From the NCBI RefSeq assembly GCF_002777745.1, contig NZ_MEIO01000055.1, forward strand, positions 248,001-312,000: DNA of 64,000 bases, in the 5' to 3' direction. The first letter of the stretch is position 1. Every line of letters starts with the position of its first letter. The notes under the pieces were generated by a model that was given only the letters and a program-made list of their open reading frames with translations, was not told the DNA's origin and searched no databases. This DNA is from Snodgrassella alvi (GTDB lineage Bacteria; Pseudomonadota; Gammaproteobacteria; Burkholderiales; Neisseriaceae). The position numbers and the translations under genes are program-made. This document shows positions 13,896-64,000 of this stretch, piece after piece.

Positions 13896-13927
13896 AATTG
13901 CTCCCCTGTTATCATGGTTACCAAATC

Positions 13928-14836
13928 TTATTGTTTAAGCAAAGCAATCCCAGTAAGCGAGCCAAATTGAGCCAGTTTACGCAATGGCCCACGCTGCCGT
14001 ATATCATAACGCCACAAATTACCACCTAGGTCTGTAATATAGATAACAGAACTGGCAAAATCCGCAGCCAAACCAATCCCTTCCTGTAACCCAGTTGCCA
14101 GCACCTCATGGTTTGTCAATCCATCTGCTCCAATACTGGCACAATTCAGACTATTACCACCTGCAGCATCAAGACCACGGTCAGTCCAGTACATTATCTG
14201 GTTCGCATGATCAATTTCCAGATCGATAGGTTCGGGCAAATTATCCAGTACGGTTACAATATCTGTACGGACTGCGGCATCGTACTCCTCATCCGGCTGC
14301 AAACAGGCGCGCAGGATCCGGCCTTCGCCACCTTTCGGTCGCCCCTTCTGAGTCCAGTAAAAATGATTATGTGGTTTATCCAGCGCAATGCCAACACAAT
14401 GACGTGAATAGTCATGCGCATCACGCGGGTACAAACCAGTCTGTACCAGCACCTCCATTCTACCGCTTAACACATCATAACGGCAGACGCGCATTCCCTC
14501 ACGGTCACACCAGTAAATTTGCTGGTTTTCCTCATCAAAAGCCACCTGTTTACCGGTAACAAACAAACCATTGCCCACCAGCTTGTGCCGTTGATGTCCA
14601 TCCAGCGAAACTTCTGCAATCATGCCATCAGCCTGAAAAAATTCAAGTGACTCTGGTTCCTTTATCCGCCCCATGCTTGAATAAAACAGCCGCTGGTGCT
14701 GCCAGTCAACAGCAATACCATCGGGAAAATCATACAACTCATCCACCAGTATCCGATGCGTAGCCGTTACCGTATCAAATTCGATAATCCGGCCTGCCGG
14801 AGCAACTTCCAGTAACAGAATCTTATCATTAGCCAT
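13928..14836 (-). CDS. YWTD-repeat beta-propeller protein (SMP-30/LDLR-like)
   Basis: A 302-residue protein without signal peptide. It contains repeated LDL-receptor-class-B-like blades: QIYWCDREG, HFYWTQKGRP and IMYWTDRGLD at regular spacing, plus the GIAVDWQHQRLFYSS blade at the N-terminus. This predicts a six-bladed propeller. Such proteins are often annotated as SMP-30/gluconolactonase-like, but no metal-site signature of a true lactonase is evident to me. Lying between dadA and alr, it may act in D-amino acid or keto-acid metabolism. That role is inference. The product is cytoplasmic as far as the sequence shows. Confidence 0.72.
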   Translation of the reverse strand: MANDKILLLEVAPAGRIIEFDTVTATHRILVDELYDFPDGIAVDWQHQRLFYSSMGRIKEPESLEFFQADGMIAEVSLDGHQRHKLVGNGLFVTGKQVAFDEENQQIYWCDREGMRVCRYDVLSGRMEVLVQTGLYPRDAHDYSRHCVGIALDKPHNHFYWTQKGRPKGGEGRILRACLQPDEEYDAAVRTDIVTVLDNLPEPIDLEIDHANQIMYWTDRGLDAAGGNSLNCASIGADGLTNHEVLATGLQEGIGLAADFASSVIYITDLGGNLWRYDIRQRGPLRKLAQFGSLTGIALLKQ

Positions 14837-15014
14837 ATTTAAACCTTATCCTTCAATAGAATAACCTGCCTTATTCGGCAGCAGGAACTAAACAGGATAA
14901 ATTAATAATATATTAATAATAAAACCATATACAGCTCTTGTATGCATCCAGAGAAGGCATAATCAAGAACGGCGCCACACAAACAAACATACAGGTTACA
15001 GCGATATTACTGGC

Positions 15015-16271
15015 TTAAATATAACGTGCCAGCGATAAATCATTGGTTTCAATTTCCGGCTTAACACCACTAATCAAATCCGCCAGAATTTTTCCTGAAC
15101 CCAACCCCATCGTCCAGCCCAATGTACCATGACCAGTATTCAGCGACAGATTTTCAAAACGGCTGGCACCAATAATCGGCGTACTATCCGGTGTCATCGG
15201 GCGCAGACCACTCCAGAAAAAGGCCTCAGAAGTATGACAACTGCCCGGAAACAGATCATTAACCACCAGGTCCAGCGTAGCCTTGCGTTTGGGATTCAGG
15301 TGAATCTGATAGCCAGACAGCTCAGCCATGCCACCAACACGGATACGTTCATCAAAACGCGTTATCGCCACCTTATAAGTTTCATCAAGAACCGTAGAAA
15401 CCGGTGCTTTATCCTTATTAATTATCGGAATAGTAAGTGAATATCCTTTTACTGGATAAACCGGCAGATTAATCCCCAGCTTACTCAGCATACTGCGGCT
15501 GAAACTGCCTAAAGCACAGACATAATGGTCGGCAGTAAACCACTGGCCATTAGCCTGCACACCTTTAATCGAACATTTGTCCTGCTGAATTGCCGAAATA
15601 GCATGCCGATACAAAAATTTCACCCCCAAAGCCGCACATTTTTCGGCCAGCTGAGTAGTAAATAAATGACAGTCACCCGTACCATCCTGAGGTAAATAAA
15701 GTGCACCAGCCAGCTTTCCGGCCATGTGTGCCAGTGCCGGTTCATACTGCGTACATTCTTCAACACTATTCAACACCTGCAACGGCACGCCGAATTCCTG
15801 TAGAACAGCTATATCAGAACGGGAATCAATAACCTCTTTTTCCGTGCGGAAAATTTGCAAAGTACCCTGCCGGCGTCCCTCATACTTAATGCTCTCTTCA
15901 GCTTCAAGTTGCTGTAACATCTCGCGGCTATATTCAGAAATACGTACCATGCGTTCTTTATTAGTTGCATAGCTCTGTTCATTACAATTCCGATACATCC
16001 GCCACAGCCATTGCAACTGAAAGAGACTGCCATCAGGACGAATCAGTAAAGGAGAATGCTCTTTAAACAGCCATTTCCACACCTTAGCTGGAATATTTGG
16101 TGCTGCCCATGGTGTAGTATAGCCATAGGATAACTGGCCAGCATTAGCAAAACTGGTTTCCATCGCGGCCTGATCAGCACGCTCAAGCACAGTAACTTCG
16201 TGTCCGGCTTTAGCCAGATACCAGGCAGTACTTACTCCAACAATACCTGCCCCCATAATCAGTACTTTCAT
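15015..16271 (-). CDS. dadA: D-amino acid dehydrogenase small subunit
   Basis: A 418-residue FAD-dependent oxidoreductase that oxidises D-alanine and other D-amino acids to keto acids, passing electrons to the quinone pool at the inner membrane. The dinucleotide fold [25 protein letters not shown] is at the extreme N-terminus. The C-terminal [19 protein letters not shown] and [17 protein letters not shown] motifs are the DadA hallmarks. It is followed by the propeller protein and alr, so L-alanine can be racemised and burnt. An Lrp-type regulator is divergently transcribed 177 bp away. Confidence 0.95.
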
Positions 16272-16448
16272 TGCCTTCTCTCCCTAGTAATCAAACGAAA
16301 TAATTCCAATCGTTTAATCGCAAAACCCTCAAACAGCTTATTTAGTTACTTTTTCTAGTGTAAACAAAGAATGATAGTGAATTTCACTTTATTTAAACAA
16401 AAAAAAGGAGTATTTTTATAAATTATCACATCTATACCATGATAAACC

Positions 16449-16913
16449 ATGCACCATATTGACAAAGTGGACATGAAGATACTGTCCCTACTGCAAAAAA
16501 ATGCCCGTACCACCATGACTGAACTGGCCGACAAGGTAGGATTGTCCACCACACCTGTCACCGAACGAGTACGGCGACTAGAACGAGAAAACATCATTAC
16601 CGGTTATCATGCACGCCTGAACCCGCGTGCCTTAAATCAGAGTCTGCTGGTATTTGTGGAAATCAAACTGCGTTCCAAATCCGGCAATATTTTCGAAGAT
16701 TTCCGACGTGAGGTACTAACCATTCCGCAAGTACTGGAATGCCACCTGATATCCGGCGAATACGATTACCTGATTAAAGTACGCCTGCCGAATATGCATG
16801 CATACCGCAACCTGTTGGGCAACATCCTGCTACAACTGCCGGCCGCAGCCGAAAGCCGCAGTTATGTTGTAATGGAAGAAGTAAAAGAAGAACAGATGTT
16901 ACATTTGGAATAA
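16449..16913 (+). CDS. lrp: Lrp/AsnC-family transcriptional regulator
   Basis: A 154-residue Lrp protein with an N-terminal helix-turn-helix (about residues 22-48, MTELADKVGLSTTPVTERVRRLERE) and a C-terminal RAM ligand-binding and oligomerisation domain (SGEYDYLIKVRLPNMHAY). Family members bind leucine or alanine and control amino-acid catabolism. In enterobacteria Lrp controls the dad operon. Its divergent placement from dadA makes that cluster the likely target, and the 177-bp AT-rich intergenic DNA the likely operator region. Confidence 0.9.
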   Translation: MHHIDKVDMKILSLLQKNARTTMTELADKVGLSTTPVTERVRRLERENIITGYHARLNPRALNQSLLVFVEIKLRSKSGNIFEDFRREVLTIPQVLECHLISGEYDYLIKVRLPNMHAYRNLLGNILLQLPAAAESRSYVVMEEVKEEQMLHLE

Positions 16914-17051
16914 ATTCCGGTCATATTAAGTACTGGTATAGATTAATCACAGCCTGTATTTATTGATTATCTTGGATAAGAAACAGGTAAACCGGCGTGG
17001 CCTAGCATACACCCTGCCGTAACAGTAGCTAGCTGAGTCTGAATCAACTTT

Positions 17052-17870
17052 TTAGTCACCACCTGCCGTCGTACCTACGTCTTGACCAACTGCTTCAATA
17101 GCGGTCTCAATGCTGCTGAATATCTGTTTTTTAGCTGTACTAACCCACCAGATAGGTTACAGCTGTTATTTACGACTAATAATGGCAATCAGTAGATAAC
17201 AAGTAAACACATTCCGACCAAGTGGCGCCGGTATATCCAGTAGCAAATGCAGGTGCCGCATCACAACAAAATTTGATCTGAGCGTCTGGCATAATAAAAG
17301 ACACAAGCGCATGAGAATAATTTTTCAGTGCGTCAACATCAGCTCAATAAACCCTGTTACCCTACCATTCAATATGATTATCTACAGATTTATACATTGC
17401 AGGCATTCAGCCCGCACAAAATAATCAAATGATGCAGAGCACCATACTTCCTGCTGGTTTTTAGAGTAAATATCGTCATCAATGGCGTGAATTGCAACAT
17501 CAACAAACCGCTGATATCTCTTGCGCAACGTGTTTCATATTGCACACATCATCAGCCACTTTTCAATTATCCGACTACTACTCTTCACCCAAACTATTCA
17601 GAATAACCAAAGCCTGTGCCACATCATATGCAGCCACAAAATATGATTATAGCCGGCTATCACATTACAACTAAGATTCAACCGCGCCAGTAAGCGCGAA
17701 AATACTGCTGTCGGCTACCATACATAACAGAATCAGCATAAAAACTTTCATTCTCCTGTATTGCAGCCTCAGCAGTTGCAAAGCCGTTGCTGGTTACTAC
17801 ACCGTATAGAATATGTATTCTCCTAAATTATGCTGCGCCACCACCGATTGCAGATTACATCACTAGAACA
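17052..17870 (-). pseudogene. Decayed secreted-protein gene
   Basis: No intact frame exists, but the minus strand holds a chain of protein-like fragments in shifting frames. Examples are YGVVTSNGFATAEAAIQENE, then VAAYDVAQALVILNSLGEE, then RYQRFVDVAIHAIDDDIYSK, then DVDALKNYSHALVSFIMPDA, ending TAKKQIFSSIETAIEAVGQD-VGTTAGGD and a stop at 17052. Stop codons and frameshifts separate them. An internal ATG at 17751 with an AGGAGA site opens a short signal-like peptide. The GVVTSNGFATAEAA fragment is reminiscent of DUF4189-type secreted proteins, but that is weak. This explains most of the 1.46-kb gap between lrp and tyrA. Confidence 0.6.
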
Positions 17871-19296: not shown

Positions 19297-20097
19297 TCAA
19301 CTTGAGCTTCCCCATGCAGCCAGAAATTCCTGCCAGTGTGGTGCCTGTTGTCCGTTCAGATAAGCTTTCAGGCAACGGATTTCCTGCTCGTACTCATCCG
19401 CATTCAGAAATCCACGCAACAGATTAAAGCGCAGATACATTAAATAAGTATTGGCCGCATCGGTTTCACAATAATGCCGAATCTGCGCCAGCTCTCCTTG
19501 CTGATAAGCCATCCATACCTTACTACCATCCATGCCCAGCTTACCCGGAAAACCACACAACTTTGCCATGTCATCCAGTGGCACACAGGCACGTGCCTGA
19601 TATAAAGATAATAAATCCATCAAATCACAATGGCGCGCATGATAGCGGCTGATATAATTATTCCATTTAAAATCGCGGCTGTCGCCAAAATCTCCCTCCC
19701 CCATATCCCAGTAACGCGCAGCACTGATACCATAAATCAGGGCACGATAATGCAATACCGGTAAATCAAAACCACCGCCATTCCAGCTTACCAGCTGTGG
19801 CGTATGAGTTTCTATCAACTCAAAAAAACGCGCAATCAGTGTTTCTTCACTGTCCTCAGGTGTCCCGATACTACCAATATGGATCTTATCCGCACCCCAG
19901 CGCATACAGCATGATATGGCCACCACCTGCTGCAAATGCAGCTGCATAAAATCATTACCACCAGTTTTAGCACGTCGCTGCTGCAAGGCAAATTCCACCA
20001 CCTCAGCATCACTTACTTCTGCCGGCAAATGATTGAGCACACGAATACCGGCTACGTCTGGAACAGTTTCAATATCGAAAGCCAAAATCGGAGTCAT
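19297..20097 (-). CDS. Predicted 3'-5' exonuclease (PolB-like DEDD fold)
   Basis: A 266-residue RNase H-fold exonuclease. Exo I is LAFDIETVPD (residues 5-14) with the metal-binding D-x-E. Exo II is LVSWNGGGFDLPVL, and a late QIRHYCETDAANTYLMYLR gives the Exo III Tyr/Asp region. This matches the stand-alone PolB-like 3'-5' exonuclease family (PF10108) that is widespread in proteobacteria. Its biological substrate is unknown. Genes of this type act in the cytoplasm on DNA or RNA ends. It is followed by tyrA on the same strand. Confidence 0.85.
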   Translation of the reverse strand: MTPILAFDIETVPDVAGIRVLNHLPAEVSDAEVVEFALQQRRAKTGGNDFMQLHLQQVVAISCCMRWGADKIHIGSIGTPEDSEETLIARFFELIETHTPQLVSWNGGGFDLPVLHYRALIYGISAARYWDMGEGDFGDSRDFKWNNYISRYHARHCDLMDLLSLYQARACVPLDDMAKLCGFPGKLGMDGSKVWMAYQQGELAQIRHYCETDAANTYLMYLRFNLLRGFLNADEYEQEIRCLKAYLNGQQAPHWQEFLAAWGSSS

Positions 20098-35517: not shown

Positions 35518-37881
35518 CTAGCCACCCAACTGCTGCAACAGATTTTGAGCTTCTGCCAATATCACACCATTGGCTTCGTCAGTCAGCTCTCTCAAGGTCT
35601 GGCGTGCAGTAACCGCATCATCCATTTCAAGATACATTTTTGCCAGTTCCAGTTTTGCCTGTAGCGGAACGGCCTGTTGCTCCGGAGTCAAAGGCTTATC
35701 AGTTGATTCTGATTCAGCTGATTGTTCCAACCAGTCCTGAGCACCACTTCCAGTAGCAAATGAAGAAGTCGGAGCTGTAACAGTAGCTGAATCAACATTA
35801 TCTGTAGCAAAAGATACAGCCTCATCATCCAACGTAAAGTCCATGGACGGAATTTCATGCGCATCAGCTTCAACTGCTGGCGTAGAGCTAGCCGCCGAGG
35901 AAGCAGGTTCAGCCATTGACTCGTCATCACTGATACCCAATGTTTCCCAGTTAATATCTGTTGAAATTGCATCATCTTCTGCCCCAGATACATTCTGCTC
36001 ATGTGGCATTGGAGTTTGCTCTACAGCAGAAGGCACTTCAACCGCAGGCGTAGTATTCTGTTCAGATTCATTATCAAACTTGAAATCTTCATCCCACTGC
36101 AAATCAGCCAAATCATTTAGCGCATCAACTTCTGAAGCAACTGGTTCAGACTGCGGTACAACCTGAATAGCATCCTGATTTACCTCTGCCTTAAACTCAT
36201 CCGGCTGCGGTTCCTCAGCCACTACCCACTCAAAATCTGTATTACCTGCTACTTCTTCCTGAGGTGCAACAACCACTGATTCATGTGAAGTCAAGACTTC
36301 CGGCTGTTCTGTCGCATCAATCTGATCCAGCCAAGACAAATCGTCACTATTATCCTGCTCAGCAGTTGACGGCACTGCCGTATTTGCCGACACGGCAGGA
36401 GTATCATCCGTAAAATTAAAATTCAGCCAGTCAGTATCATTCTCTTCCTGCTTATCCGCAACTGGTGCAGTTTTAGGATGTTGAGTTACAGCGGCCACCT
36501 TATTCGTATCGCCTGCTGGCGCATCAGCTTTAGCAGGTGTATCTGATTCGGCACTATTCAGCCATGACCAATCATCGTCCTCCGCTGCTGCACTAGTGGC
36601 AGCAGCTGCCGTAGCTACCGCAGCTGCTGATGCAGCTTTAGCCGGTGTAGCCGGAACAGATACAGATTGCTCAACCTTAGGCGGTTCAGCATCAAATACC
36701 ACATCATCATCTTCATCATCAGATGAATAATCATCGTCATACTCATCATTATTGCGTCTTTTACGCGCTTGCCAGAGTAAAGCAGCAATTAACAGGATAC
36801 CACCCACACCTGCCAACGCATATGGCCACCACGCAGGAAGCATAGATTCTTCTGCCGGCTCTTCTACCGTTGGCGGTACCTGATTAACTTTAGGTTGTAC
36901 CGGAGCAGCATTTACCACTGATGCTGCTGATGCAACAGGTGCTGAAGCCTGAACTGGTGCAGATGCTTGTACTGGCGCAGATGCCTGTACAGTTTCTGTT
37001 CTGGCTTCTGCATCCTTAGTTTGGGCTGCTTTATCAGTTTCAGGAGCGATAGCATTTCCAGCCTTATCAGCACCGGCATCTGCCTTAGCCTGTTTCTGTG
37101 CCGCAGCATTTTCCGCAGCACCCTGTGCTACTGGCGCTGCCGATACCGGCGCATTATTCTGAGCAACATCTGCCGGTTTTTGAACTGCTTTGATTTTTAC
37201 TTTAGATAATTTATGCAGTTGTGAAGTAGATGGAATATTCAGGCTGATACCACGATACATAAGATCTGGATTGCCATTGCGGAAAGCGTGCGGATTGGCA
37301 ACAACCAGAGCATGCATAGTCTGCTCAAGACTCATTCCCTGAGGTCGTACCTTGCGTGCAACATCCATCAGTGTTTCATTATTGTCTACATGATATTTCA
37401 CCACTGCACTATCAGAGGCCAGCCCGTTTTGCAGTGCCACAGCAGCCCGAGCAGATGACTTGTCTTTCGCAGACCGAACCGGCTTGTGCTGCTTGTTTGC
37501 TGTCTTACTTGCTGCTTTGCCAGCTCCTGCTGAACCATGACGGTATTCAGGAGGATCAAGTAATGCAGTATATTGCCGCCCCTGACTACCGGCACTCAGA
37601 CTGAAAGACAGCATTGGATCGCGAACAGGCTTACTGGAACGCAAATGAATCACAGCATTTTTTCCTTGTGCCGTTACGCGTACCTGCAACGGTGCCCCCG
37701 AAACCGCTGGCCGACTCCGTAAAGCAGCTCTGGCTTCATCTCCAGTCACAACTACACTGCCTGAAAACGGCTCGCCCAAGGCCGAATTAACTTGTAAGCT
37801 CCCCAGCCCTGCCCATGCAGGTGCACTGGCTAACATACATAAAGACAGTGCGATGATTTTTAAATTATTTGCGTTCTTCAA
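35518..37881 (-). CDS. FimV/TspA-type inner-membrane hub protein
   Basis: A 787-residue FimV-family protein, called TspA in Neisseria. Its parts in order are: signal peptide (1-24, cleaved near AWA-GLGSL); the FimV N-terminal domain beginning LGSLQVNSALGEPFSG; a LysM-like domain (about 160-218, VKYHVDNNETLMDVARKVRP...YRGISLNIPS); an Ala/Gln-rich linker with VQASAP repeats; one transmembrane helix near 345-365 followed by KRR; a long acidic cytoplasmic region with recurring DWLNF/DLSWLDQ-type motifs; and a C-terminal TPR-like FimV domain (LELAKMYLEMDDAVTARQTL). FimV proteins organise type IV pili, twitching and polar complexes. It is divergent from yciB, as in Neisseria. Confidence 0.88.
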   Translation of the reverse strand: MKNANNLKIIALSLCMLASAPAWAGLGSLQVNSALGEPFSGSVVVTGDEARAALRSRPAVSGAPLQVRVTAQGKNAVIHLRSSKPVRDPMLSFSLSAGSQGRQYTALLDPPEYRHGSAGAGKAASKTANKQHKPVRSAKDKSSARAAVALQNGLASDSAVVKYHVDNNETLMDVARKVRPQGMSLEQTMHALVVANPHAFRNGNPDLMYRGISLNIPSTSQLHKLSKVKIKAVQKPADVAQNNAPVSAAPVAQGAAENAAAQKQAKADAGADKAGNAIAPETDKAAQTKDAEARTETVQASAPVQASAPVQASAPVASAASVVNAAPVQPKVNQVPPTVEEPAEESMLPAWWPYALAGVGGILLIAALLWQARKRRNNDEYDDDYSSDDEDDDVVFDAEPPKVEQSVSVPATPAKAASAAAVATAAAATSAAAEDDDWSWLNSAESDTPAKADAPAGDTNKVAAVTQHPKTAPVADKQEENDTDWLNFNFTDDTPAVSANTAVPSTAEQDNSDDLSWLDQIDATEQPEVLTSHESVVVAPQEEVAGNTDFEWVVAEEPQPDEFKAEVNQDAIQVVPQSEPVASEVDALNDLADLQWDEDFKFDNESEQNTTPAVEVPSAVEQTPMPHEQNVSGAEDDAISTDINWETLGISDDESMAEPASSAASSTPAVEADAHEIPSMDFTLDDEAVSFATDNVDSATVTAPTSSFATGSGAQDWLEQSAESESTDKPLTPEQQAVPLQAKLELAKMYLEMDDAVTARQTLRELTDEANGVILAEAQNLLQQLGG

Positions 37882-52752: not shown

Positions 52753-53916
52753 TTAATTACTTTTATCCTCACATCTCGCCTTACGCTTAAAATTCTCATC
52801 ATTCGAACAAAACTGGTATGAGTCCAATACAAGCGCAGCAAGACGTAATATATTCTCAGGCACATCAATAATAATCTGCTCACCTGAAACTTCTAATCCA
52901 CATTTTTCAATATTTTTTACATCTTCTGAAGTTAATGCTTTTGGAAACACTATTGATGGCCGCTGTTTATTATCAAAATAGCGTAAAATCCAGCGATTTA
53001 CCTTACCAGCAAACAGAATACTGAAATACGTCTCTGTATCCTTAGCCACCACATCAGCATCCTCTGGCAAAATAGATTTTACAATATCAAATAACCGGCG
53101 CTCTGCATAAGTAGTTACAATCTTATTATTATCAGGGTCAACGATTGGTGCCATTGGATCGACCTTATTCGCCCCATTAGCTACCACTTCCTCTATAATT
53201 TTCGGTGCCGACAAGCCAGATACCACCATTGAACTAACTGTATTTTGTACCGCCTGTCGCACTATATGCTGAATACTTTCCAAAAAACGCTGATTAAACT
53301 GCTTCTGAATATTTGCTCGCCCTGCAACATAACGCACAAAATCTGTATCTACCTCTTTCAGACTTTCCGTAATCGCATCTGTGAAAGCCATTAGATAAAT
53401 ACTTTCTTCAGCAAGATTACGTAGTTCTTCTGGCCTAAACTGGTCATGACGGAACTTATACAACTGCATCATGTCACTTTCAGAAACCTGTGTAACATCA
53501 ATAGTCAGAAAAGGCTCTGCATCCATTACATTCTTATTAGTTAAATCAGTAAAAAATCGCCATTCCTGCCCATTTGTAATTGCACAAATCGATACTTCCT
53601 GTACAGCATTAAAATAACGCGACAACTGAGGACAATGGTTTACAAGCTTTTCCTGAAAAGGTTTAGCCTCAATAAACATTACCGGTGTGCCTTGAGAAAA
53701 CAAAGCATAATCTACTCGCTCTCCCGATTTTACCCCGGGAAAATCAGCCTGATATTCAGCCCGTACCTTATTCGGGTCAAAGGCAGAAAATCCCAGAATA
53801 TCTAGTAATGGCAATATCAACGCTTGTTTAGTAGTTTCTTCTGTTGTACAAACATTACCTACTTTCTTTACATGTTCAGCATGTGCCAGCAAGCGTTCCT
53901 TGAATATTGCATTCAT
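52753..53916 (-). CDS. Solo HsdR_N-type (type I restriction R subunit N-terminal) nuclease
   Basis: A 387-residue protein with an HsdR_N-like PD-(D/E)xK domain in its first third: TKQALILPLLDILGFSAFDPNKVRAEY, then GERVDYALF (Asp69) and VMFIEAKPF (Glu83, Lys85), the metal-binding D...E-x-K. It ends after about 390 residues without the helicase motor domains of real HsdR, and no hsdM or hsdS is near. The remaining C-terminal 220 residues have no motif I know. Stand-alone relatives sit in defence islands or prophages, so a defensive or regulatory role is plausible but unproven. Confidence 0.75.
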   Translation of the reverse strand: MNAIFKERLLAHAEHVKKVGNVCTTEETTKQALILPLLDILGFSAFDPNKVRAEYQADFPGVKSGERVDYALFSQGTPVMFIEAKPFQEKLVNHCPQLSRYFNAVQEVSICAITNGQEWRFFTDLTNKNVMDAEPFLTIDVTQVSESDMMQLYKFRHDQFRPEELRNLAEESIYLMAFTDAITESLKEVDTDFVRYVAGRANIQKQFNQRFLESIQHIVRQAVQNTVSSMVVSGLSAPKIIEEVVANGANKVDPMAPIVDPDNNKIVTTYAERRLFDIVKSILPEDADVVAKDTETYFSILFAGKVNRWILRYFDNKQRPSIVFPKALTSEDVKNIEKCGLEVSGEQIIIDVPENILRLAALVLDSYQFCSNDENFKRKARCEDKSN

Positions 53917-55975: not shown

Positions 55976-56188
55976 ATGAAAAAAGACGACGATTTTAAAA
56001 ACGCTAAGCCAAATCCTCATGCCAGCCAATTGAAAAAAATAATTACCATTCGTATAGACCAAGAAATTCTCAACTATTTTAGAGAACTGGCCGAAGAAAC
56101 AGGTTTGCCCTATCAATCACTGATTAACTTATTCCTAAAGGATTGTGTTACCAATCAATACAAACCTGATATAAAATGGAACAAATAA
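55976..56188 (+). CDS. BrnA/CopG-family antitoxin
   Basis: A 70-residue ribbon-helix-helix-type antitoxin: MKKDDDFKNAKPNPHASQLKKIITIRIDQEILNYFRELAEETGLPYQSLINLFLKDCV. The linker K-K-x-I-T-I-R-I-D and the GLPYQSLINLFLKD end are characteristic of antitoxins that pair with BrnT-like ribonucleases. A GAGGAA site precedes the ATG. It is intact while its toxin partner is broken. It may persist by neutralising a related toxin elsewhere, or by acting as a repressor. The DNA-binding N-terminal strand would normally autoregulate the operon. Confidence 0.82.
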   Translation: MKKDDDFKNAKPNPHASQLKKIITIRIDQEILNYFRELAEETGLPYQSLINLFLKDCVTNQYKPDIKWNK

Positions 56189-56312: not shown

Positions 56313-56865
56313 AAGCAGCGGCTGTATTGATATGGATATATTATATTGCTGGCTATATTGATACAGATATATTGCTGCGGAAACCGGCTGCTTAGCGGCA
56401 GGATATTGCGTATTTAGGGCTGCAAGTGTGTGGTTAACTTTCAGGTTAACTCTGTTCGCCTTTGCTTTTGCTGCCTGATTGCAGGGATGTTGCATATTTT
56501 TTATGATTTATATCAAAAATTTAGCTAATAGCTAGCTGTAATCTGCGGCTGTGTTGATACAGATATTTTACTGCGCATACCGGCTGCTTGGCGGCAGGAT
56601 ATTGCGTATTTGTGGCTGTGAATAAGTGGTTAACTTTCAGGTTAACTCTGTTCGCCTTTGCTTTTGCTGCCTGATTGCAGGGTTGTTGCAGATTTTTATG
56701 ATTTATATCAAAAATTTAGCTAATAGCTAGCTGTAATGCCGCGGCTGTGTTGATATAGATATTTTACTGCGGAAACTAGCTGCTTTACGGCAGGATATTG
56801 CGTATTTGGGACTGAAGTCTGATAGCCAGAGCTATATTATAGGGAGCATATCTGCTGATACAGGC
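56313..56865. repeat. Intergenic repeat array A (three 196-bp units)
   Basis: The word GCAGGATATTGCGTATTT recurs at 56398, 56594 and 56790, exactly 196 bp apart. The paired-HpaI-site word GGTTAACTTTCAGGTTAACT occurs at 56432 and 56628. Between them each unit carries GCCTTTGCTTTTGCTGCCTG, TTTTTATGATTTATATCAAA and AGCTAATAGCTAGCTGTAAT. The third unit is cut short where it meets the 3' flank of the downstream lipoprotein gene. It is non-coding in all frames as far as I can see. Confidence 0.88.
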
Positions 56866-56916
56866 TAATCAGCCGCCGCGAAAATGTAGGCGGCTGTGTT
56901 GGGTATGGGCTTAGGC

Positions 56917-57696
56917 TTATTTGCCTGGTACCGGCAATTTACCTTGCCGCTCTAATTCCTGAATATACTCAGGCAGGATTACCTGCGGGATATTTTGCCG
57001 TTCTGCTTTAATTGCATCCAGCCTGGCTTTATTACGCCGGTAATCCGCCATCGATTTTATAGACGGGCGCGGGGTGCAGAGTTTCTGGCTTTTAGCAAAT
57101 AGTTCGAATTGCTTTTTCACTATTTCGGGTGCATTTTCTTGTCTGGTACCATAATCAATAAAAATCTGATTACAAGCCAGAAAATGGACAGTGATATTTC
57201 TTACTTTGCCAAAATCATCACCGGCAGATGGCGGTGGTGGCGGTAAAGGGATTTCCGCTGAATGATTTTCAGTATATTGCATTATGGTTTGATATTCATT
57301 CTCATCAAAAACCAATCCGGGCTTATTTAATACTTTTGGTCGCCAATCTGGATAAGGCAAATCTGTCCAATAAATCCGCGCAGTCATACCCGGCTTCCAT
57401 CTGGCTGGCAGATGGGCGGCGCCACAGGTAGAACCACCGCCATAGCGTTTTTTACCTACATCTTCAAAGTTAATAGCTGATGTGTTAGGTATACAGCCAC
57501 CACTAATACTACCACCATGAATATTTTCAAAAGTATAGTTTAATGCCTCCACCGGCGCGGCATAAGATTTGTTTTTACCAGAGGTTACGCCTACAAATGG
57601 TTCAAAGCTGCTGCATGAGGTGATGGCTGCTGCTGACAGTATCAGTATTGCCCGCCGGATAACTGTGCTGGTGATAGCTGCTTTTTTCCCAGTCAT
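56917..57696 (-). CDS. DUF3304-like lipoprotein, probable Tle1 immunity protein, copy 1
   Basis: A 259-residue predicted lipoprotein: basic N-terminus, hydrophobic stretch, lipobox ITSC (Cys28), then SSFEPF. The core AAPVEALNYTFENIHGGSISGG, KRYGGGSTCGAAHLPARWKPGMTARIYW resembles DUF3304, whose members have a YNYT start, a glycine-rich S-x-G-G region and a C-C/C-G turn before a W-x-P-G strand. Such lipoproteins flank Tle1 lipase effectors and block them in the periplasm. A polyproline run (PLPPPPPS) precedes the variable patch (residues 178-198). The copy at 58473-59246 is nearly identical elsewhere. No terminator follows, only a CAGCCGCC/GGCGGCTG hairpin at 56870-56896. Confidence 0.72.
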   Translation of the reverse strand: MTGKKAAITSTVIRRAILILSAAAITSCSSFEPFVGVTSGKNKSYAAPVEALNYTFENIHGGSISGGCIPNTSAINFEDVGKKRYGGGSTCGAAHLPARWKPGMTARIYWTDLPYPDWRPKVLNKPGLVFDENEYQTIMQYTENHSAEIPLPPPPPSAGDDFGKVRNITVHFLACNQIFIDYGTRQENAPEIVKKQFELFAKSQKLCTPRPSIKSMADYRRNKARLDAIKAERQNIPQVILPEYIQELERQGKLPVPGK

Positions 57697-57787
57697 TTAA
57701 TTCTCGCTATGGTGTTTTTGTAATGGGGTGATTATTAGTTTCTGGTTTGGCTGATTAACTTTTGTATTACAACCTGCTTGCCGCTTT

Positions 57788-57805
57788 GTTATGGATTTTC
57801 ATAAC
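57788..57805. promoter_or_regulatory. 18-bp palindrome upstream of immunity copy 1
   Basis: GTTATGGATTTTCATAAC, a 6-bp-arm inverted repeat, lies 92 bp before the start codon. The same palindrome stands at the same place before copy 2. It may be an operator or part of the promoter. Confidence 0.4.
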
Positions 57806-57829
57806 ATATATCAATATTTTACCCAATTA

Positions 57830-58430
57830 TTGGCTATGCTGCCGCGGCTGTATTGATATGGGTATTTTATATTGCTGGCTATATTGATACAGATATTTTG
57901 CTGCGTATACCGGCTGCTTTGCAGCAGGATATTGCGTATTTGGGGCTGTAAGTAAGTGGTTAACTTTCAGGTTAACTCTATCTGCCTTTGCTTTTGCTGC
58001 CTGATTGCGGTGCTGTTGCAGATTTTTATGATTTATATCAAAAATTTATCTAATAGCCAGCTGTAATGCTGTGGCTGTGTTGATGTAGATATTTTATATA
58101 GCTAAGCACGTTGATACAGGTATTTTGCTGCGGAAACCGGCCGCTTTACGGCAGGATATTGCGTATTTGGGGCTGGAAGTGTGTGGTTAACTTTCAGGTT
58201 AACTCTATCTGCCTTTGCTTTTGCTGCTTGGTTGCAGTGCTGTTGCAGATTTTTATGATTTATATCAAAAATTTATCTAATAGCTAGCTGTAATGCCGTG
58301 GCTGTGTTGATATAGATATTTTACTGCGGAAACTAGCTGCTTTACGGCAGGATATTGAGTATTTGGGGCTGAAGTCTGATAGCCGGAGCTATATTATCGG
58401 TGCATATCTGCTGATACAGGCGAATCAGCC
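57830..58430. repeat. Intergenic repeat array B (three units, one 31 bp longer)
   Basis: The same word as in array A occurs at 57924, 58151 and 58347 (spacings 227 and 196 bp). GGTTAACTTTCAGGTTAACT occurs at 57958 and 58185. The extra 31 bp in the first interval re-duplicates the TTGATAnAGnTATTTT segment. It lies between the two lipoprotein copies and is the internal junction of their tandem duplication. Confidence 0.88.
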
Positions 58431-58472
58431 GCCGCGAAAATGTAGGCGGCTGTGTTGGGTGTGAGCTTAGGT

Positions 58473-59246
58473 TTATTTGCCTGGCACTGGCAATTTGCCT
58501 TGCCGCTCTAATTCCTGAATATACTCAGGCAGAATCACCTGCGGGATATTTTGCCGCTCTGCTTTAATTGCATCCAGCCTGGCTTTATTGCGCCGGTAAT
58601 CCGCCATAGATTTTATAGACGGGCGCGGGGTGCAGAGTTTCTGGCTTTTGGCAAATAGCTTGTAATGCATGGGGGTATTTTTACCCTCCTCTACTGTGCC
58701 ATAAGTAATATATAGCTGATTGCAGGCCAGAAAATGGACGGTAATATTACTTACCTTGCCAAAATCATCACCGGCAGATGGTGGTGGTGGCGGTAAAGGG
58801 ATTTCTGCTGAATGATTTTCAGTATATTGCATTATGGTTTGATATTCATTCTCATCAAAAACCAATCCGGGCTTATTTAATACTTTTGGTCGCCAATCTG
58901 GATAAGGCAAATCTGTCCAATAAATCCGCGCAGTCATGCCCGGCTTCCATTTGGCTGGCAGATGGGCAGCACCGCAGGTGGAGCCGCCACCATAGCGTTT
59001 TTTACCTACATCTTCAAAGTTAATAGCTGATGTGTTAGGTATACAGCCACCACTAATACTACCACCATGAATATTTTCAAAAGTATAGTTTAATGCCTCC
59101 ACCGGCGCCGCATAGGATTTGTTTTTACCAGAAGTTACGCCTACAAATGGTTCAAAGCTGCTACATGAGGTGATGGCAGCGGCTGACAGGATAAATATTG
59201 CCCGCCGGATAACTGTGCTTGTGGTAGCTGCTTTTTTCCCAGTCAT
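58473..59246 (-). CDS. DUF3304-like lipoprotein, probable Tle1 immunity protein, copy 2
   Basis: A 257-residue paralogue of copy 1 with the same lipobox (ITSC, Cys28), DUF3304-like core and polyproline run. Differences outside one patch are few: I8T, L18F, R99K and R166S relative to copy 1. The patch (copy 1 residues 178-198) is rewritten here as LYITYGTVEEGKNTPMHYK, two residues shorter, and then identity resumes at LFAKSQKLCTPRPS. It lies nearest the effector gene and so is the better candidate for its cognate immunity protein. Upstream is array C. Confidence 0.72.
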   Translation of the reverse strand: MTGKKAATTSTVIRRAIFILSAAAITSCSSFEPFVGVTSGKNKSYAAPVEALNYTFENIHGGSISGGCIPNTSAINFEDVGKKRYGGGSTCGAAHLPAKWKPGMTARIYWTDLPYPDWRPKVLNKPGLVFDENEYQTIMQYTENHSAEIPLPPPPPSAGDDFGKVSNITVHFLACNQLYITYGTVEEGKNTPMHYKLFAKSQKLCTPRPSIKSMADYRRNKARLDAIKAERQNIPQVILPEYIQELERQGKLPVPGK

Positions 59247-59337
59247 TTAATTCTCGCTATGGTATTTTTGTAATAAGGTGATTGTTAGTTTCTGGTTTGG
59301 CTGGTTAACTTTTGTCTTATAACCTGCTTGCCGCCCT

Positions 59338-59355
59338 GTTATGGATTTTCATAAC
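59338..59355. promoter_or_regulatory. 18-bp palindrome upstream of immunity copy 2
   Basis: GTTATGGATTTTCATAAC at the same offset as before copy 1, kept identical while neighbouring bases differ (for example CCGCCCTGTT versus CCGCTTTGTT just before it). Confidence 0.4.
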
Positions 59356-59389
59356 ATATATCAATATTTTACCCAATTATTGGCTATAC

Positions 59390-60035
59390 TGCCGCGGCTG
59401 TATTGATATGGATATATTATATTGCTGGCTATATTTATACAGATATATTGCTGCGTATACCGACCGCTTTGCAGCAGGATATTGCGTATTTGGGGCTGTA
59501 AGTAAGTGGTTAACTTTCAGGTTAACTCTGTTCACCTGTGCTTTTGCTGCCTGATTGCAGTGCTGTTGCAGATTTTTATGATTTATATCAAAAATTTAGC
59601 TAATAGCTAGCTGTAATGCCGCGGCTGTGTTGATACAGATATTTTACTGCGGAGACCGGCCGCTTTGCGGCAGGATATTGCGTATTTAGAGCTGTAAGTG
59701 CGTGGTTAACTTTCAGGTTAACTCTGTTCGCCTTTGCTTTTGCTGCTTGGTTGCAGTGCTGTTGCTGGTTTTTATGATTTATATCAAAAATTTAGCTAAT
59801 AGCTAGCTGTAATGCTGCGGCTGTGTTGATACAGGTATTTTGCTGCGGAAACCGGCTGCTTGGCGGCAGGATATTGCGTATTTGGGGCTGTAAGTGTGTG
59901 GTTAACTTTGGAGTTAACTCTGTTCGCCTTTGCTTTTGCTGCCTGATTGCAGGGATGTTGCGGGTTTTTATGGTGTATAGCAGCAATTTAGCCAATGATT
60001 GGCTGTGGTGTTGTTTATCGCTTATTTGGCTATGC
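59390..60035. repeat. Intergenic repeat array C (three 196-bp units)
   Basis: The word GCAGGATATTGCG occurs at 59474, 59670 and 59866, exactly 196 bp apart. The GGTTAACTT pair occurs at 59508, 59704 and 59900, with the last changed to GGTTAACTTTGGAGTTAACT. The last unit degenerates (TTATGGTGTATAGCAGCAAT) toward the effector gene. It separates copy 2 from the effector. Confidence 0.88.
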
Positions 60036-60165: not shown

Positions 60166-63100
60166 CTAAACCAGCCAGCTTTGCAATACTTTTTTTATTA
60201 ATTCAATCTTTTGTGGCGAAACTGACTGTAGTTGTGTCGGGATGTTGCCTGTTTGCAACTGTTGCAGCAGGCCGCGGATTTGCGGCTGGCTGTAGCTGGC
60301 AATTTTTTCCGGCAGATACTGGTTGACTTCCAGATGGCCTAATCCCAGCCGGTTCAGGGCAAGCTGGTTTATTTGTTCTAATGCCTGATCGTAGATATCG
60401 CCGCTGCTGTTGTGGTAAAAGGTCTGTGCCAGGGTTTGTGGCTCTTGCGCACTGCTTTGCAGCAATGCGGAGCTGGCTTCGCTGCGGCTGCGGATATCTT
60501 GCTGATACTGGCTAATCTGCTGGCGCAGATGCTCGGCCAGACTGTCTTTGCTGATGTTTTCCAGGCCGGGCGGCTGCATTAGGCTAACTTGTGGCATGCT
60601 GGCTGTCGGGTCGGTACGCACGGTGATGCCCTGCCGCAAGGCTGTCTGTAGCTGCTGTTTATCGATGGTGCCGGCCTTGGCCTGCTCTACTGCGGCTTGC
60701 AACTGCTGCTGATTGCTGCTTACCTTATCCAGCATTTCCCCTATCTGATCTGCCTGCTGCGCCAGCTCCGGGCCGGATTCACTCAACCGGCTGAGTGTTC
60801 GTTGCTGCTCCATCAGCAGCTCACGGATTTCATTCAGATTTTTGATGGTTTCATCGCTGTTCTGGATAACCTGATCAAGCGTTTGGTTGACAAAATCCTT
60901 GTCTGTCCATGGCTCCTGCCTGGCATATTCGCTCTTAATCTGTTCGAGCGCGGTTTGCATGTCTTTGCTGAACTGGCGCAGCTTTTTCAGATTGTCGCTG
61001 CTGGGCAAGATTTTACCGGTATCGGGGTCGATGGCTAATACTTCATAGTCTTTGGTGAGCAGGCTCCATGCAGCTTTATCGGCGGCGGTAACAAAAAGCT
61101 CGGGATTGTTCAGGCCTATCAGGATATAGGCGGGATTGCCGTATTTCACGCCCAGATAGGCGCTGCGGGCAATACCGGCAATACCAACAATGCGCTCCGC
61201 CAGCAACACGGGCGAGAGTGGCTTATTGGAAAAGCCGCCACTGAAAACAATGCGATGGGCAAAATAGCTGGTGAAAGGTTCGCGGCTGCTCAGCACAGAA
61301 TCATGCATAAACCAGGCTCGCGAATCGTGTATCTGGTTGTCGAAAATCTCCACCATCTGCGGATAGGTGGCGGAATATTTTTCTGCATGGGTTTTCAGCC
61401 TTTGCCGCAATACCACTCTGTCGCGCATATCGGCCTGCTGTAGCCGTTTCCAGATATCTTTGGCTACGTTTCCCGCAAGGTTTAAGCCGCGTACATGCTG
61501 ATAGCGCTGGCGCAGCATATTAAGCATGGCGCCACTGACAAACGAACCTTTATCGGCATTGCACAACATATCATAGATTTCCTGCGCTGAAAATTCCCAC
61601 GGGTATTGGCGCTCTTTGCCATCTTCGCCCTGCGCGCCGGCAGGATATTTCTGCGCCACAAAGGTTTTCGCCAGCGGGGGAATAGGTAGCGGCCTGGTGT
61701 CTGGCTCCGGCGTTTTAAGCTTGGAAGGCTCGGTGCCGAAATACAGGGTATCGCCATTATCGTGGATATCTTTGTATTCAGCCGCTTCATCATCGTTATT
61801 GAGCATATACATGCTGCCGGCAAGCATGGTGGATACCAGAAAACCCGCCGAGAGCATGTTTTCCAGATGGAATTCATGCAGGTAATCGGCTTTGAATTCT
61901 TTGGCGCCTTCGATTAAATCCCAGCCATCGTTACCGGCAACGTAATTTTTATTGATGATGCCGTTAAGAAACTTGCTGCGCTCGGCTTTAGGTATATTGT
62001 CGAGCCCGGCCTGCTGCCACATTTCATCATTATCTACCACCGGGGTAGTGCGTATATTGCTCTTGCCGGCTTCGTTGGCCTCTTTGCGCCCCTGCCCGAT
62101 CAGTTTGGTGCGGGCTTTTTTGGCGGCTTTATTTTCCTTTTCGCCAAGGCTGCCATCGGCATTAAGCTGCAAGCCCAGAAAGCGCGCATAGCCGCCGATA
62201 CCGGAGCGCACCCAGCGCAGAATACGGTAGGCAGTGAAATGATGAATCTGTTTTTGCAGCGCGGTGCTGATATTCGTAGTTTCCAGTGTTTTCACCCAGG
62301 CATTGAAAAGCTTTACCATTTCCGGCTTAGTATCAAATTCCTCAGCTGTCTCTCTATTCATAATTTCATAGTTCTTCAGCTTAAAGCGCGGATGCTTTTG
62401 CATATCTTTTTTTAATGCCGGATGATCAGGTGATATCTGCAAAGGCATACCATGCTGCCAGCAATACGCATACATATCATGCAGGGTAATCTGTGCCAGC
62501 ACATGCCCCATACCGTAGTTGCTTTTAAACTGCTCGCCGGGCGGATAGCCACCGCCAATATCAGAATGCACCCCCGGATAAACGTATTCCTTAAAATTGC
62601 CTTTGGGATAGCCGCCATCAACGCAGATGCTGTCGACACAAAAGCTTTTGCGCTGCTCATGAGCGGAAACAAATTGGTAGCAGTTTTTAACAAAGCCGGC
62701 GCTGCCGGCGCGCTGTAAGGACATGGTGCGGTGTGCCCACGCACAATGGCCGGTAACCATCGCTACCAGCGGCGACATGCCCACGGTAGCCACAGTATCA
62801 AACAGGCCGCACATTTCGATATAGATAGGAATACCCAGCAGCTTAAGCTCAATGCCCTGATAGGGCTGCTCGCCAGCGGGCGCAGTAGCTGCTTTACCTT
62901 TAGATGCTTTGGGTGCGGCGGAACGCATGGCGGCGGCCTGCGCCTGCACGCGCTGAATGGCGGCCTTATCGGCAGCACTGTTTACCGGGCTGGCAGGCGC
63001 GGCCGCGGCTGGTTCCTTATCCTTATCTGGTGCATCCTCCTGCTTGGCGGCTGCGGCGGCTTCAGCAGCGGCTTCGGCCGCGGCGCGGTTATCCTGCCGC

Positions 63101-64000
63101 TGCGCGATGCGCTCCTGTGCCTGCTGCACCAGCAACTGCGCCAACTGGGCGCGGGCAGCGGCATTTTCATCGCGGTCGAGCAGATAATCGAGCAGCCAGT
63201 TGATAAAGGTGCGCGCTTCGGCGGCGCCACGGGAAAAGCCCACAACATACAGCTTAATCGCTTTCGGCAAGGGGGTGGAATCTGGCCGCTGCAAGGTATC
63301 AAGAAAGCCGTCAAGCTGCGCTTTGCGCCCGGCACGGCAATCCATGCTTTTTACCATTTTCTGCGCCGTTTCTAACGGCAATTCTTTTTCATTAAATATT
63401 TTGCAGATACCCAGGCTGGCGCAGATACGGGTTAACCCCCAGTTAATGCGCGCCTCGCCAAATCTGGCCAGCGCTTCGCCAAGCATCCCCGGATTGGCAT
63501 CGCCGATTTCTTCAAAGCGGGTGCCCACGCCCTGAATATAATGCTTAAACCAGCCATTTTTAATCATTTCCTCATCGCGATTATTATCGCCCGGCAGTCC
63601 ACCGGCGCCCATACAGGCATGAAACAGACGCGCCACATTAGTGGTACGCGGGTAGGTATAAGCCTGAATCAGCTTAGCCTGCTGGGCGGCGGTATCTTTG
63701 AGCGGGTCTAGCTGCTCAGCTGTGGGCGGAGTGGCGCCGGAAACCACGCTATCGGCCTTTTCGTGGTTATTGGTGCCATCAAAAAAGAAGCTGAGTTTCA
63801 GCACTTTTTGGCAGGGCTTGGCCTTGGTGCGGTCGATAAAATGGTTGTCTTTGCGGTTGTGGTGAATGCTGTTGATGGACGCCGGCAGGCGGCCACCGGC
63901 AGCGGTGGGAAATTCATCTGGCTTAAGTATGCCCGGCCACTGAAATTCTATCGGCTTAATGGCCGGCATAAATGGCGCGGCCATTTCCTGAATGCGGCTT
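60166..64000 (-). CDS. Tle1-like T6SS phospholipase effector (DUF2235), 5' end possibly outside the window
   Basis: At least 1,272 residues from an ATG at 63984. No stop lies between that ATG and the window edge and no well-spaced Shine-Dalgarno precedes it, so the true start may lie upstream. Numbering from that ATG: FFFDGTNN (66-73) begins the DUF2235 alpha/beta-hydrolase. The nucleophile is G-F-S-R-G (249-253, Ser251), the likely Asp is in LFDTVATVG (Asp396), and the His is in GVHSDIGGGYPPGEQ (His473). An Ala/Lys/Glu-rich insert (about 275-375) splits the catalytic domain. One hydrophobic segment (about 700) and a long coiled coil (about 1085-1160) follow. The family degrades phospholipids of rival cells after T6SS delivery. 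The adjoining DUF3304-like lipoproteins fit as immunity. Confidence 0.85.
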   Translation of the reverse strand, partial: SRIQEMAAPFMPAIKPIEFQWPGILKPDEFPTAAGGRLPASINSIHHNRKDNHFIDRTKAKPCQKVLKLSFFFDGTNNHEKADSVVSGATPPTAEQLDPLKDTAAQQAKLIQAYTYPRTTNVARLFHACMGAGGLPGDNNRDEEMIKNGWFKHYIQGVGTRFEEIGDANPGMLGEALARFGEARINWGLTRICASLGICKIFNEKELPLETAQKMVKSMDCRAGRKAQLDGFLDTLQRPDSTPLPKAIKLYVVGFSRGAAEARTFINWLLDYLLDRDENAAARAQLAQLLVQQAQERIAQRQDNRAAAEAAAEAAAAAKQEDAPDKDKEPAAAAPASPVNSAADKAAIQRVQAQAAAMRSAAPKASKGKAATAPAGEQPYQGIELKLLGIPIYIEMCGLFDTVATVGMSPLVAMVTGHCAWAHRTMSLQRAGSAGFVKNCYQFVSAHEQRKSFCVDSICVDGGYPKGNFKEYVYPGVHSDIGGGYPPGEQFKSNYGMGHVLAQITLHDMYAYCWQHGMPLQISPDHPALKKDMQKHPRFKLKNYEIMNRETAEEFDTKPEMVKLFNAWVKTLETTNISTALQKQIHHFTAYRILRWVRSGIGGYARFLGLQLNADGSLGEKENKAAKKARTKLIGQGRKEANEAGKSNIRTTPVVDNDEMWQQAGLDNIPKAERSKFLNGIINKNYVAGNDGWDLIEGAKEFKADYLHEFHLENMLSAGFLVSTMLAGSMYMLNNDDEAAEYKDIHDNGDTLYFGTEPSKLKTPEPDTRPLPIPPLAKTFVAQKYPAGAQGEDGKERQYPWEFSAQEIYDMLCNADKGSFVSGAMLNMLRQRYQHVRGLNLAGNVAKDIWKRLQQADMRDRVVLRQRLKTHAEKYSATYPQMVEIFDNQIHDSRAWFMHDSVLSSREPFTSYFAHRIVFSGGFSNKPLSPVLLAERIVGIAGIARSAYLGVKYGNPAYILIGLNNPELFVTAADKAAWSLLTKDYEVLAIDPDTGKILPSSDNLKKLRQFSKDMQTALEQIKSEYARQEPWTDKDFVNQTLDQVIQNSDETIKNLNEIRELLMEQQRTLSRLSESGPELAQQADQIGEMLDKVSSNQQQLQAAVEQAKAGTIDKQQLQTALRQGITVRTDPTASMPQVSLMQPPGLENISKDSLAEHLRQQISQYQQDIRSRSEASSALLQSSAQEPQTLAQTFYHNSSGDIYDQALEQINQLALNRLGLGHLEVNQYLPEKIASYSQPQIRGLLQQLQTGNIPTQLQSVSPQKIELIKKVLQSWLV

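What the first reader, a model, noticed from the sequence alone, without database searches (positions are those of the whole stretch)
57697..57830. The repeat unit looks derived from the immunity gene's own 5' region
Seen on the minus strand: the DNA upstream of each lipoprotein gene reads CCAATAATTGGGTAAAATAT then TGATATATGTTATGAAAATC, while repeat units read GCTATTAGCTAAATTTTTGA then TATAAATCATAAAAATCTG, followed in both by a GCAAGCAGG/GCAATCAGG-like stretch and a GTTAAC. Inference: the arrays may be stacked promoter regions left behind when immunity genes were lost, that is, scars of earlier cassettes.
Basis: inference. Interest (0 to 1): 0.66.

Follow-up and report, generated by a model that had tools for sequence, protein, structure and literature searches.

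The report
Repeats copied from an immunity-gene control region
In a bacterium of the bee-gut genus Snodgrassella, the DNA repeats between a set of toxin-immunity genes are old, altered copies of the region in front of those genes, and some of them are probably footprints of immunity genes that have been lost.

Summary
Each 196/227-nt unit consists of p (about 129 nt), an altered copy of the 5' part of the lipoprotein genes' leader P, and M (67 or 98 nt), an element that in relatives lies upstream of P. In gene direction the locus reads T-M-p-M-p-M'-P-gene: repeated "M-P" upstream regions without the ribosome-binding end. Unit positions 1-71 match P ungapped at about 70%, at 8 of 8 P copies. 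The locus (C55:304.3-323.2 kb, running past the window) holds 19 p, 25 M, nine DUF3304 (Tli1-type) lipoprotein genes and one Tle1-like T6SS phospholipase. No unit match lies elsewhere in the genome or in 60 relatives (13 congeneric). Relatives have the immunity-gene arrays without p-M arrays.

"Each unit is its own lost cassette" is only partly supported. All p form one clade, so p arose once. Units within an array are no more alike than units of different arrays, and the immunity genes are mosaic, so exchange across gaps is likely. Gene loss shows at two array ends that carry the P-adjacent form of M but no P or intact gene, and in one pseudogene. Exchange between the M elements flanking a gene would drop the gene and leave an extra unit, but unequal exchange without gene loss gives the same product.

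The parts
57697..57843 (-). P: leader and presumed promoter of lipoprotein gene 56917-57696 (the finding)
   Evidence: core GTAAAATATTGATATAT, 9 matches in this genome, all before the nine lipoprotein genes of this locus
56917..57696 (-). DUF3304 lipoprotein gene (259 aa, Tli1-type immunity protein)
   Evidence: Pfam PF11745 E 5.1e-10
59247..59393 (-). P of the second lipoprotein gene
58473..59246 (-). DUF3304 lipoprotein gene (257 aa)
   Evidence: Pfam PF11745 E 4.2e-10
60166..64000 (-). Tle1-like T6SS phospholipase; the open frame runs to C55:312338, i.e. 338 nt past the window end (start codon not verified)
   Evidence: PF22137 E 5.7e-47, PF09994 E 4.7e-19 (on 60166-63984); GFSRG motif in the translation
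59884..60012 (-). array g8, p0 variant of p, on the side of the effector's 3' end
59817..59883 (-). array g8, M (short)
59688..59816 (-). array g8, p
59621..59687 (-). array g8, M (short)
59492..59620 (-). array g8, p
59394..59491 (-). array g8, M' (long form, next to P)
58365..58472 (-). T: 3' flank of lipoprotein gene 58473-59246 with an AGCCGCC..GGCGGCT hairpin
   Evidence: DNA fold of 70 nt of it z -2.44
58298..58364 (-). array g9, M1 (short)
58169..58297 (-). array g9, p
58071..58168 (-). array g9, long M followed by p (probable exchange junction; 227-nt period)
57942..58070 (-). array g9, p
57844..57941 (-). array g9, M' (long form, next to P)
56808..56916 (-). T: 3' flank of lipoprotein gene 56917-57696
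56741..56807 (-). array g10, M1 (short)
56612..56740 (-). array g10, p
56545..56611 (-). array g10, M (short)
56416..56544 (-). array g10, p
56318..56415 (-). array g10, long M' ending at GCCGC with no P and no lipoprotein gene behind it: gene-less array end

Best explanation
The units are a multiplied, altered copy of the upstream control region (M-P) of the DUF3304 immunity lipoproteins of a Tle1-type T6SS effector. In relatives a gap between such genes typically reads T-M-P-gene. In this lineage one M-P stretch was copied once without its ribosome-binding end, giving T-M-p-M'-P-gene. That p-M module then spread with the immunity cassettes and was multiplied by homologous exchange through the similar M elements, which stand on both sides of most genes. 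Exchange between M' in front of a gene and M1 behind it removes P, gene and T and leaves one extra p-M unit, so at least part of the arrays record lost immunity genes. Shown: homology of p to P, M-like sequence at the same place in relatives, single clade of p, mosaic genes, gene-less array ends, a pseudogene. Inferred: the founding duplication, the M x M exchange, and that the leader is the promoter. The units are most likely by-products, and useful substrates, of immunity-gene turnover rather than promoters that drive the genes.
For: Unit-to-P match at 8 of 8 P, in register; shuffles. M upstream of relatives' genes: 42-43 nt at 77-79%, E 7e-5 to 3e-4, in 5 of 5 gene-to-gene gaps of S. communis L031, and local matches at p <= 0.025 for 11 of 53 relative or second-locus genes tested, all 11 in G006, G009 or G010 at -204 to -281 from ATG. 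All 25 unit matches of the genome lie in this locus; 0 of 60 relatives have one, with at most 13 candidates scored per genome. P core: 9 of 9 matches in G000 lie before the nine lipoprotein genes; over 14 genomes 29 matches, 26 of them 110-157 nt before a DUF3304 frame, reversed-pattern control 0. One p clade, 19 of 19, support 87/92. Within-array identity 0.860 (11 pairs) against 0.872 between arrays (160 pairs), P 0.77; without the three p0, 0.916 (6) against 0.910 (114), P 0.26. M long before P in 8 of 8, before p in 3 of 15 (Fisher 3.4e-4), and long at both gene-less ends. Immunity genes mosaic: neighbouring informative sites (118 sites, nine genes) incompatible in 0.381 against 0.635 in 2000 permutations, none as low.
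Against: No second strain of this species was at hand, so no before/after pair shows the exchange. The two p of g9 are each other's nearest neighbours (0.939), as local duplication predicts. The query found M before 0 of 6 genes of the S. communis array (the query did find it) and missed 42 of 53 genes in all at p 0.025; many of these belong to the second subfamily with another leader or to genes only 64-103 nt apart, but not all. Three of 29 P-core matches have no DUF3304 frame behind them: one in G012, which has no DUF3304 match, one near the start of G009:C85, and one at a contig end that cannot be judged. Support for the p clade is moderate and one long-branch relative falls among the P rows. 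The long/short change of M may have recurred, since it is a deletion between short direct repeats.
Confidence: 0.62

Rival explanations
1. Plain local tandem duplication and slippage of the upstream region; no gene loss needed. Repeats are neutral.
For: The junction p-to-M is the same in both models; g9a and g9b are sisters; 196- and 227-nt periods are regular.
Against: Within-array units are no more alike than between-array units; three M of long type are followed by p, a recombinant-looking junction; two array ends carry the P-adjacent M but no gene. Exchange without gene loss remains possible.
Confidence: 0.25
2. Functional regulatory array: the units bind a regulator (p has a perfect TGAT-N4-ATCA dyad, FNR-like by recall) or fire as extra promoters that set immunity-gene expression.
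For: The dyad is present in 16 of 19 p; the P-core block in p varies at 3 of 28 sites against 36 of 105 elsewhere, Fisher 0.018.
Against: The block was chosen by eye; scan statistics over window sizes 15-30 give P 0.15-0.69. The three p0 and all eight P lack the dyad. Common descent explains the conservation. No sigma-70 match in units. The relatives examined do without the arrays.
Confidence: 0.1
3. M (or p-M) is a small mobile or site-specific recombination element with fixed ends (left AAATACGC, right GCCGC).
For: Array ends break at GCCGC twice.
Against: 0 unit copies elsewhere in the genome; four exact M copies fold no better than shuffles (z 0.78, -1.29, 0.87, 0.50); M-like sequence is followed by P in relatives.
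Confidence: 0.03

Closest known systems
T6SS immunity gene arrays of Vibrio cholerae (Kirchberger 2017, PMC5361080; section 13 and passages read)
   Same: One effector with several immunity genes; history of earlier modules kept in the array; recombination proposed.
   Different: There immunity genes are kept while effectors are displaced, and the authors argue against duplication. Here paralogues of one family are tandem, mosaic, and separated by repeats copied from the leader; in part it is genes that went and leaders that stayed.
Tle1/Tli1 with DUF3304 lipoproteins (P. aeruginosa tli1a/tli1b, PMC13133936; V. cholerae Aux 5 TleV/TliV, PMC6691524; passages read)
   Same: Tle1-like lipase with two DUF3304 immunity genes; in P. 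aeruginosa both are predicted lipoproteins and one is thought to be a pseudogene. In V. cholerae the two lie upstream of the effector.
   Different: Nine DUF3304 genes at this locus and p-M arrays between them; no such repeats appear in the passages read. TliV1b of V. cholerae is not predicted to have a signal sequence.
Rhs C-terminal displacement arrays in bee gut bacteria (PMC8125069, PMC5727410; passages read)
   Same: Same genus; orphan toxin ends and immunity genes in arrays.
   Different: Different effector family; the term DUF3304 occurs in neither text; Tle occurs not at all in PMC8125069 and only in a reference in PMC5727410.
maf islands of Neisseria (mafB/mafI; PMC4287609, search listing only)
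   Same: Same family of bacteria; toxin and immunity cassettes in islands (recalled).
   Different: Different toxins; resemblance in layout is recalled, not tested.

Membership tests
Tle1-type T6SS phospholipase with Tli1 (DUF3304) immunity | Effector matches Tle1 catalytic and C-terminal models above curated cut-off | tested here: met
   PF22137 161.3 bits (cut-off 34), PF09994 69.2 (27)
Tle1-type T6SS phospholipase with Tli1 (DUF3304) immunity | GXSXG nucleophile motif | tested here: met
   GFSRG in the translation
Tle1-type T6SS phospholipase with Tli1 (DUF3304) immunity | Adjacent lipoproteins match DUF3304 | tested here: met
   2 of 2 tested, 40.1 and 40.4 bits (cut-off 22); the other seven only by tblastn to one of these
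Tle1-type T6SS phospholipase with Tli1 (DUF3304) immunity | Lipoproteins protect against the effector | not testable with these tools
   needs a co-expression or competition assay
Immunity gene array by effector displacement (V. cholerae model) | Array members are of different immunity types, not duplicates | tested here: not met
   nine DUF3304 paralogues; the eight others are 78-92% identical to the ninth by tblastn, one of them over residues 25-258 only
Integron-like cassette array | attC-like hairpin recombination sites between genes | tested here: inconclusive
   four M copies do not fold better than shuffles; no integrase search was made
Dispersed intergenic repeat / MITE | Copies at unrelated places in the genome | tested here: not met
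   25 of 25 unit matches lie in one 18.8-kb locus

The most novel reading that the evidence does not exclude
The arrays are a countable fossil record of immunity-gene turnover. A normal gap carries one p; each further p-M marks one immunity cassette deleted by exchange between the M elements flanking it. With 19 p in ten arrays the locus would have lost about nine immunity genes or more, and still renews the set by the same exchange.
Probability: 0.28. Interest if true: 0.65.

Novelty: new variant of a known kind. Interest (0 to 1): 0.45.

Why it matters
Immunity genes decide which neighbours' toxins a bacterium survives, and losing one is normally invisible. If extra leader copies mark lost immunity genes, the history of lost protections can be read from a single genome and tested by comparing strains. 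It also suggests a simple way for a locus to shuffle and prune paralogous immunity genes.

Tried and rejected
Genome-wide repeat or mobile element: rejected, all 25 unit matches are in one locus. Non-coding RNA: four RcsR1 matches, 25.5-27 bits against a gathering score of 60, not taken as real. Hairpin-driven element: four exact M copies are not special in DNA folding (one search used a composite M, see below). Promoter prediction in units: nothing above chance. Selection on the p core: nominal only. FNR-like dyad: noted, not relied on. Homology of the p tail to the last part of the leader: p 0.013 with strict scoring (the match is AAGTTAACCA alone) and 0.006 with lenient scoring, 2000 shuffles each, so the exact junction is unsettled. 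Repeats of about 196 nt in relatives: tandem repeat search of 16 stretches (14 of relatives, 2 of the second DUF3304 loci of this genome) found none. First identity table had unit g10b out of register and was replaced by an alignment. Papers: searches listed no paper whose title or shown abstract describes leader-derived repeats between immunity genes; only five papers were looked into, by passages or one section, and the library lacks most subscription papers.

Full report
Where it is. The window is G000:C55:248001-312000 of a 2.6-Mb genome in 67 contigs. Genomes of its genus match, by contig number and position, records named Snodgrassella alvi Nev4-2 (G009), S. gandavensis (G010) and S. communis (G003), so I treat it as a Snodgrassella species; the exact species is not known. 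Genes and repeats of the finding lie on the minus strand. I read the locus in gene direction as JM, the reverse complement of C55:302000-333881 (window position = 85882 - JM).

What is there. A Tle1-like T6SS phospholipase stands among nine intact DUF3304 lipoprotein genes, seven before it and two after it in gene direction; more family members lie on contigs C64 (three) and C25 (one). Around the genes lie 19 p and 25 M in ten arrays (M were counted with the pattern AAATAC[GT]CAATATCC, so a more diverged M would be missed). Unit matches number 25, all in C55:304351-323128; none was found in 60 relatives, 13 of them of the same genus, with up to 13 candidates scored per genome.

The observation. 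P, the 147 nt before eight of the nine lipoprotein genes, and p, the first part of the unit, align without gaps over 71 nt from the same boundary (GCCGC/GGCA), at about 70%. blastn found all eight P with one unit, in register. Against shuffles, 18 of 19 p have a median score of 24-37 where shuffles average about 18; 15 of 19 beat every one of 1000 shuffles with their best P, four do not.

The other half. M is probably not new DNA either. In relatives, leaving out gaps that hold the effector and the second subfamily, 17 of 23 gaps between family members are 340-500 nt long, and the six aligned (S. communis two, G006 two, Nev4-2 one, S. gandavensis one) run 3' flank, M-like stretch, P, gene, least clearly in one of the G006 gaps. 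S. communis has the M core in 5 of 5 gene-to-gene gaps by blastn. With a second query 11 of 53 genes, all in G006, G009 and G010, show it at -204 to -281 at p 0.025 or better, while 0 of 6 in the S. communis array do, so detection depends on the query. The P core GTAAAATATTGATATAT (at most one mismatch) has 9 matches in this genome, one before each of the nine genes; over 14 genomes there are 29 matches in 5 genomes, 26 of them 110-157 nt before a DUF3304 frame; of the other three, one is in G012, which has no DUF3304 match, one near the start of G009:C85 and one too near a contig end to judge; the reversed control has none. So the whole unit looks like a copy of the genes' own upstream region, minus its last stretch with the ribosome-binding site.

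One origin, then exchange. All 19 p, including three altered p0, form one clade (support 87/92) apart from P; one long-branch row of G006 falls among the P rows. Hence the units are not separate remnants of many promoters. Within arrays, p are not more alike than between arrays: 0.860 against 0.872, P 0.77; without p0 0.916 against 0.910, P 0.26. Recent local duplication predicts the opposite; only the pair of g9 are mutual nearest neighbours. M comes long (98 nt) or short (67 nt). Long is the form before P in 8 of 8; before p it is 3 of 15. By eye the longer spacing also occurs in S. gandavensis and Nev4-2, not in S. communis, and may be ancestral; as a deletion between short direct repeats it may have recurred. 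The three long M followed by p look like junctions between a P-side M and a p-side M. The lipoprotein genes are mosaic.

Gene loss. Two arrays end with a long M' and then neither P nor intact gene: g10 at window 56318-56415 and g6 at JM 19634-19731, where a truncated DUF3304 remnant (JM 19756-20047) follows. The first array, g0, has no lipoprotein gene or 3' flank on its far side. In gap 13538 the 3' flank is joined to M at CTGTATCA, an 8-nt word present in both, so short-repeat deletion has probably happened here. CAACACAGCCGC occurs 19 times in the joined stretch, all in one direction: 5 at the start of the 3' flank and 14 at the end of an M. It is exact in 5 of 8 3' flanks (one mismatch in three) and at 1 of 8 M'/P borders (one or two mismatches in seven), so P plus gene is bracketed by short direct repeats, mostly imperfect. 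Relatives too hold decayed copies.

Mechanism. Because M stands on both sides of most genes, exchange M' x M1 would remove P-gene-T and leave p-M'-p, the form seen in g0, g4 and g9. Unequal exchange between gaps gives the same. I hold gene loss for part of the extra units likely, for all of them possible.

Known relatives. T6SS immunity arrays are known, in V. cholerae by effector displacement (PMC5361080, section 13 read). DUF3304 proteins as Tle1 immunity are known (PMC13133936 and PMC6691524, passages). Bee gut Rhs arrays are known (PMC8125069, PMC5727410, passages). I saw no report of leader-derived repeats in the listings.

Limits. One genome of this species; draft assembly, though all 19 p differ from one another and lie inside a 334-kb contig; short sequences, moderate tree support; promoter function of P is inferred from position and conservation.

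Noticed in passing
L078 (G006:C1:452500-471500) 13079-17237: Five DUF3304 immunity genes in a row with gaps of only 64-70 nt, an operon-like layout unlike the longer gaps elsewhere.
   Followed up: no
G000:C64:28178-31713 and C25:2891-3607: Second DUF3304 subfamily (67-71% identical to the query) with a different leader; three genes in tandem on C64.
   Followed up: partly
window 56416-56544 and the other p units: Perfect TGAT-N4-ATCA dyad in 16 of 19 p (not in the three p0), FNR-like by recall; in 0 of 8 P.
   Followed up: partly
window 55976-56188: BrnA/CopG-type antitoxin-like gene (70 aa) just beyond the gene-less array end; no toxin partner was looked for.
   Followed up: no
window 52753-53916: Protein of 387 aa with a type I restriction HSDR_N domain; neighbours not examined for the other subunits.
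   Followed up: no
L030 2771-2971 and L028 8739-9436: Decayed DUF3304 fragments beside intact copies in S. gandavensis and Nev4-2.
   Followed up: partly
L094 (G012:C12:2053-2069) and G009:C85:51-67: Two matches of the P core without a DUF3304 frame within 260 nt behind them; possibly orphan leaders.
   Followed up: no
window 36934-36990: 18-nt tandem repeats inside the coding frame 35518-37881, FimV-like by recall.
   Followed up: no
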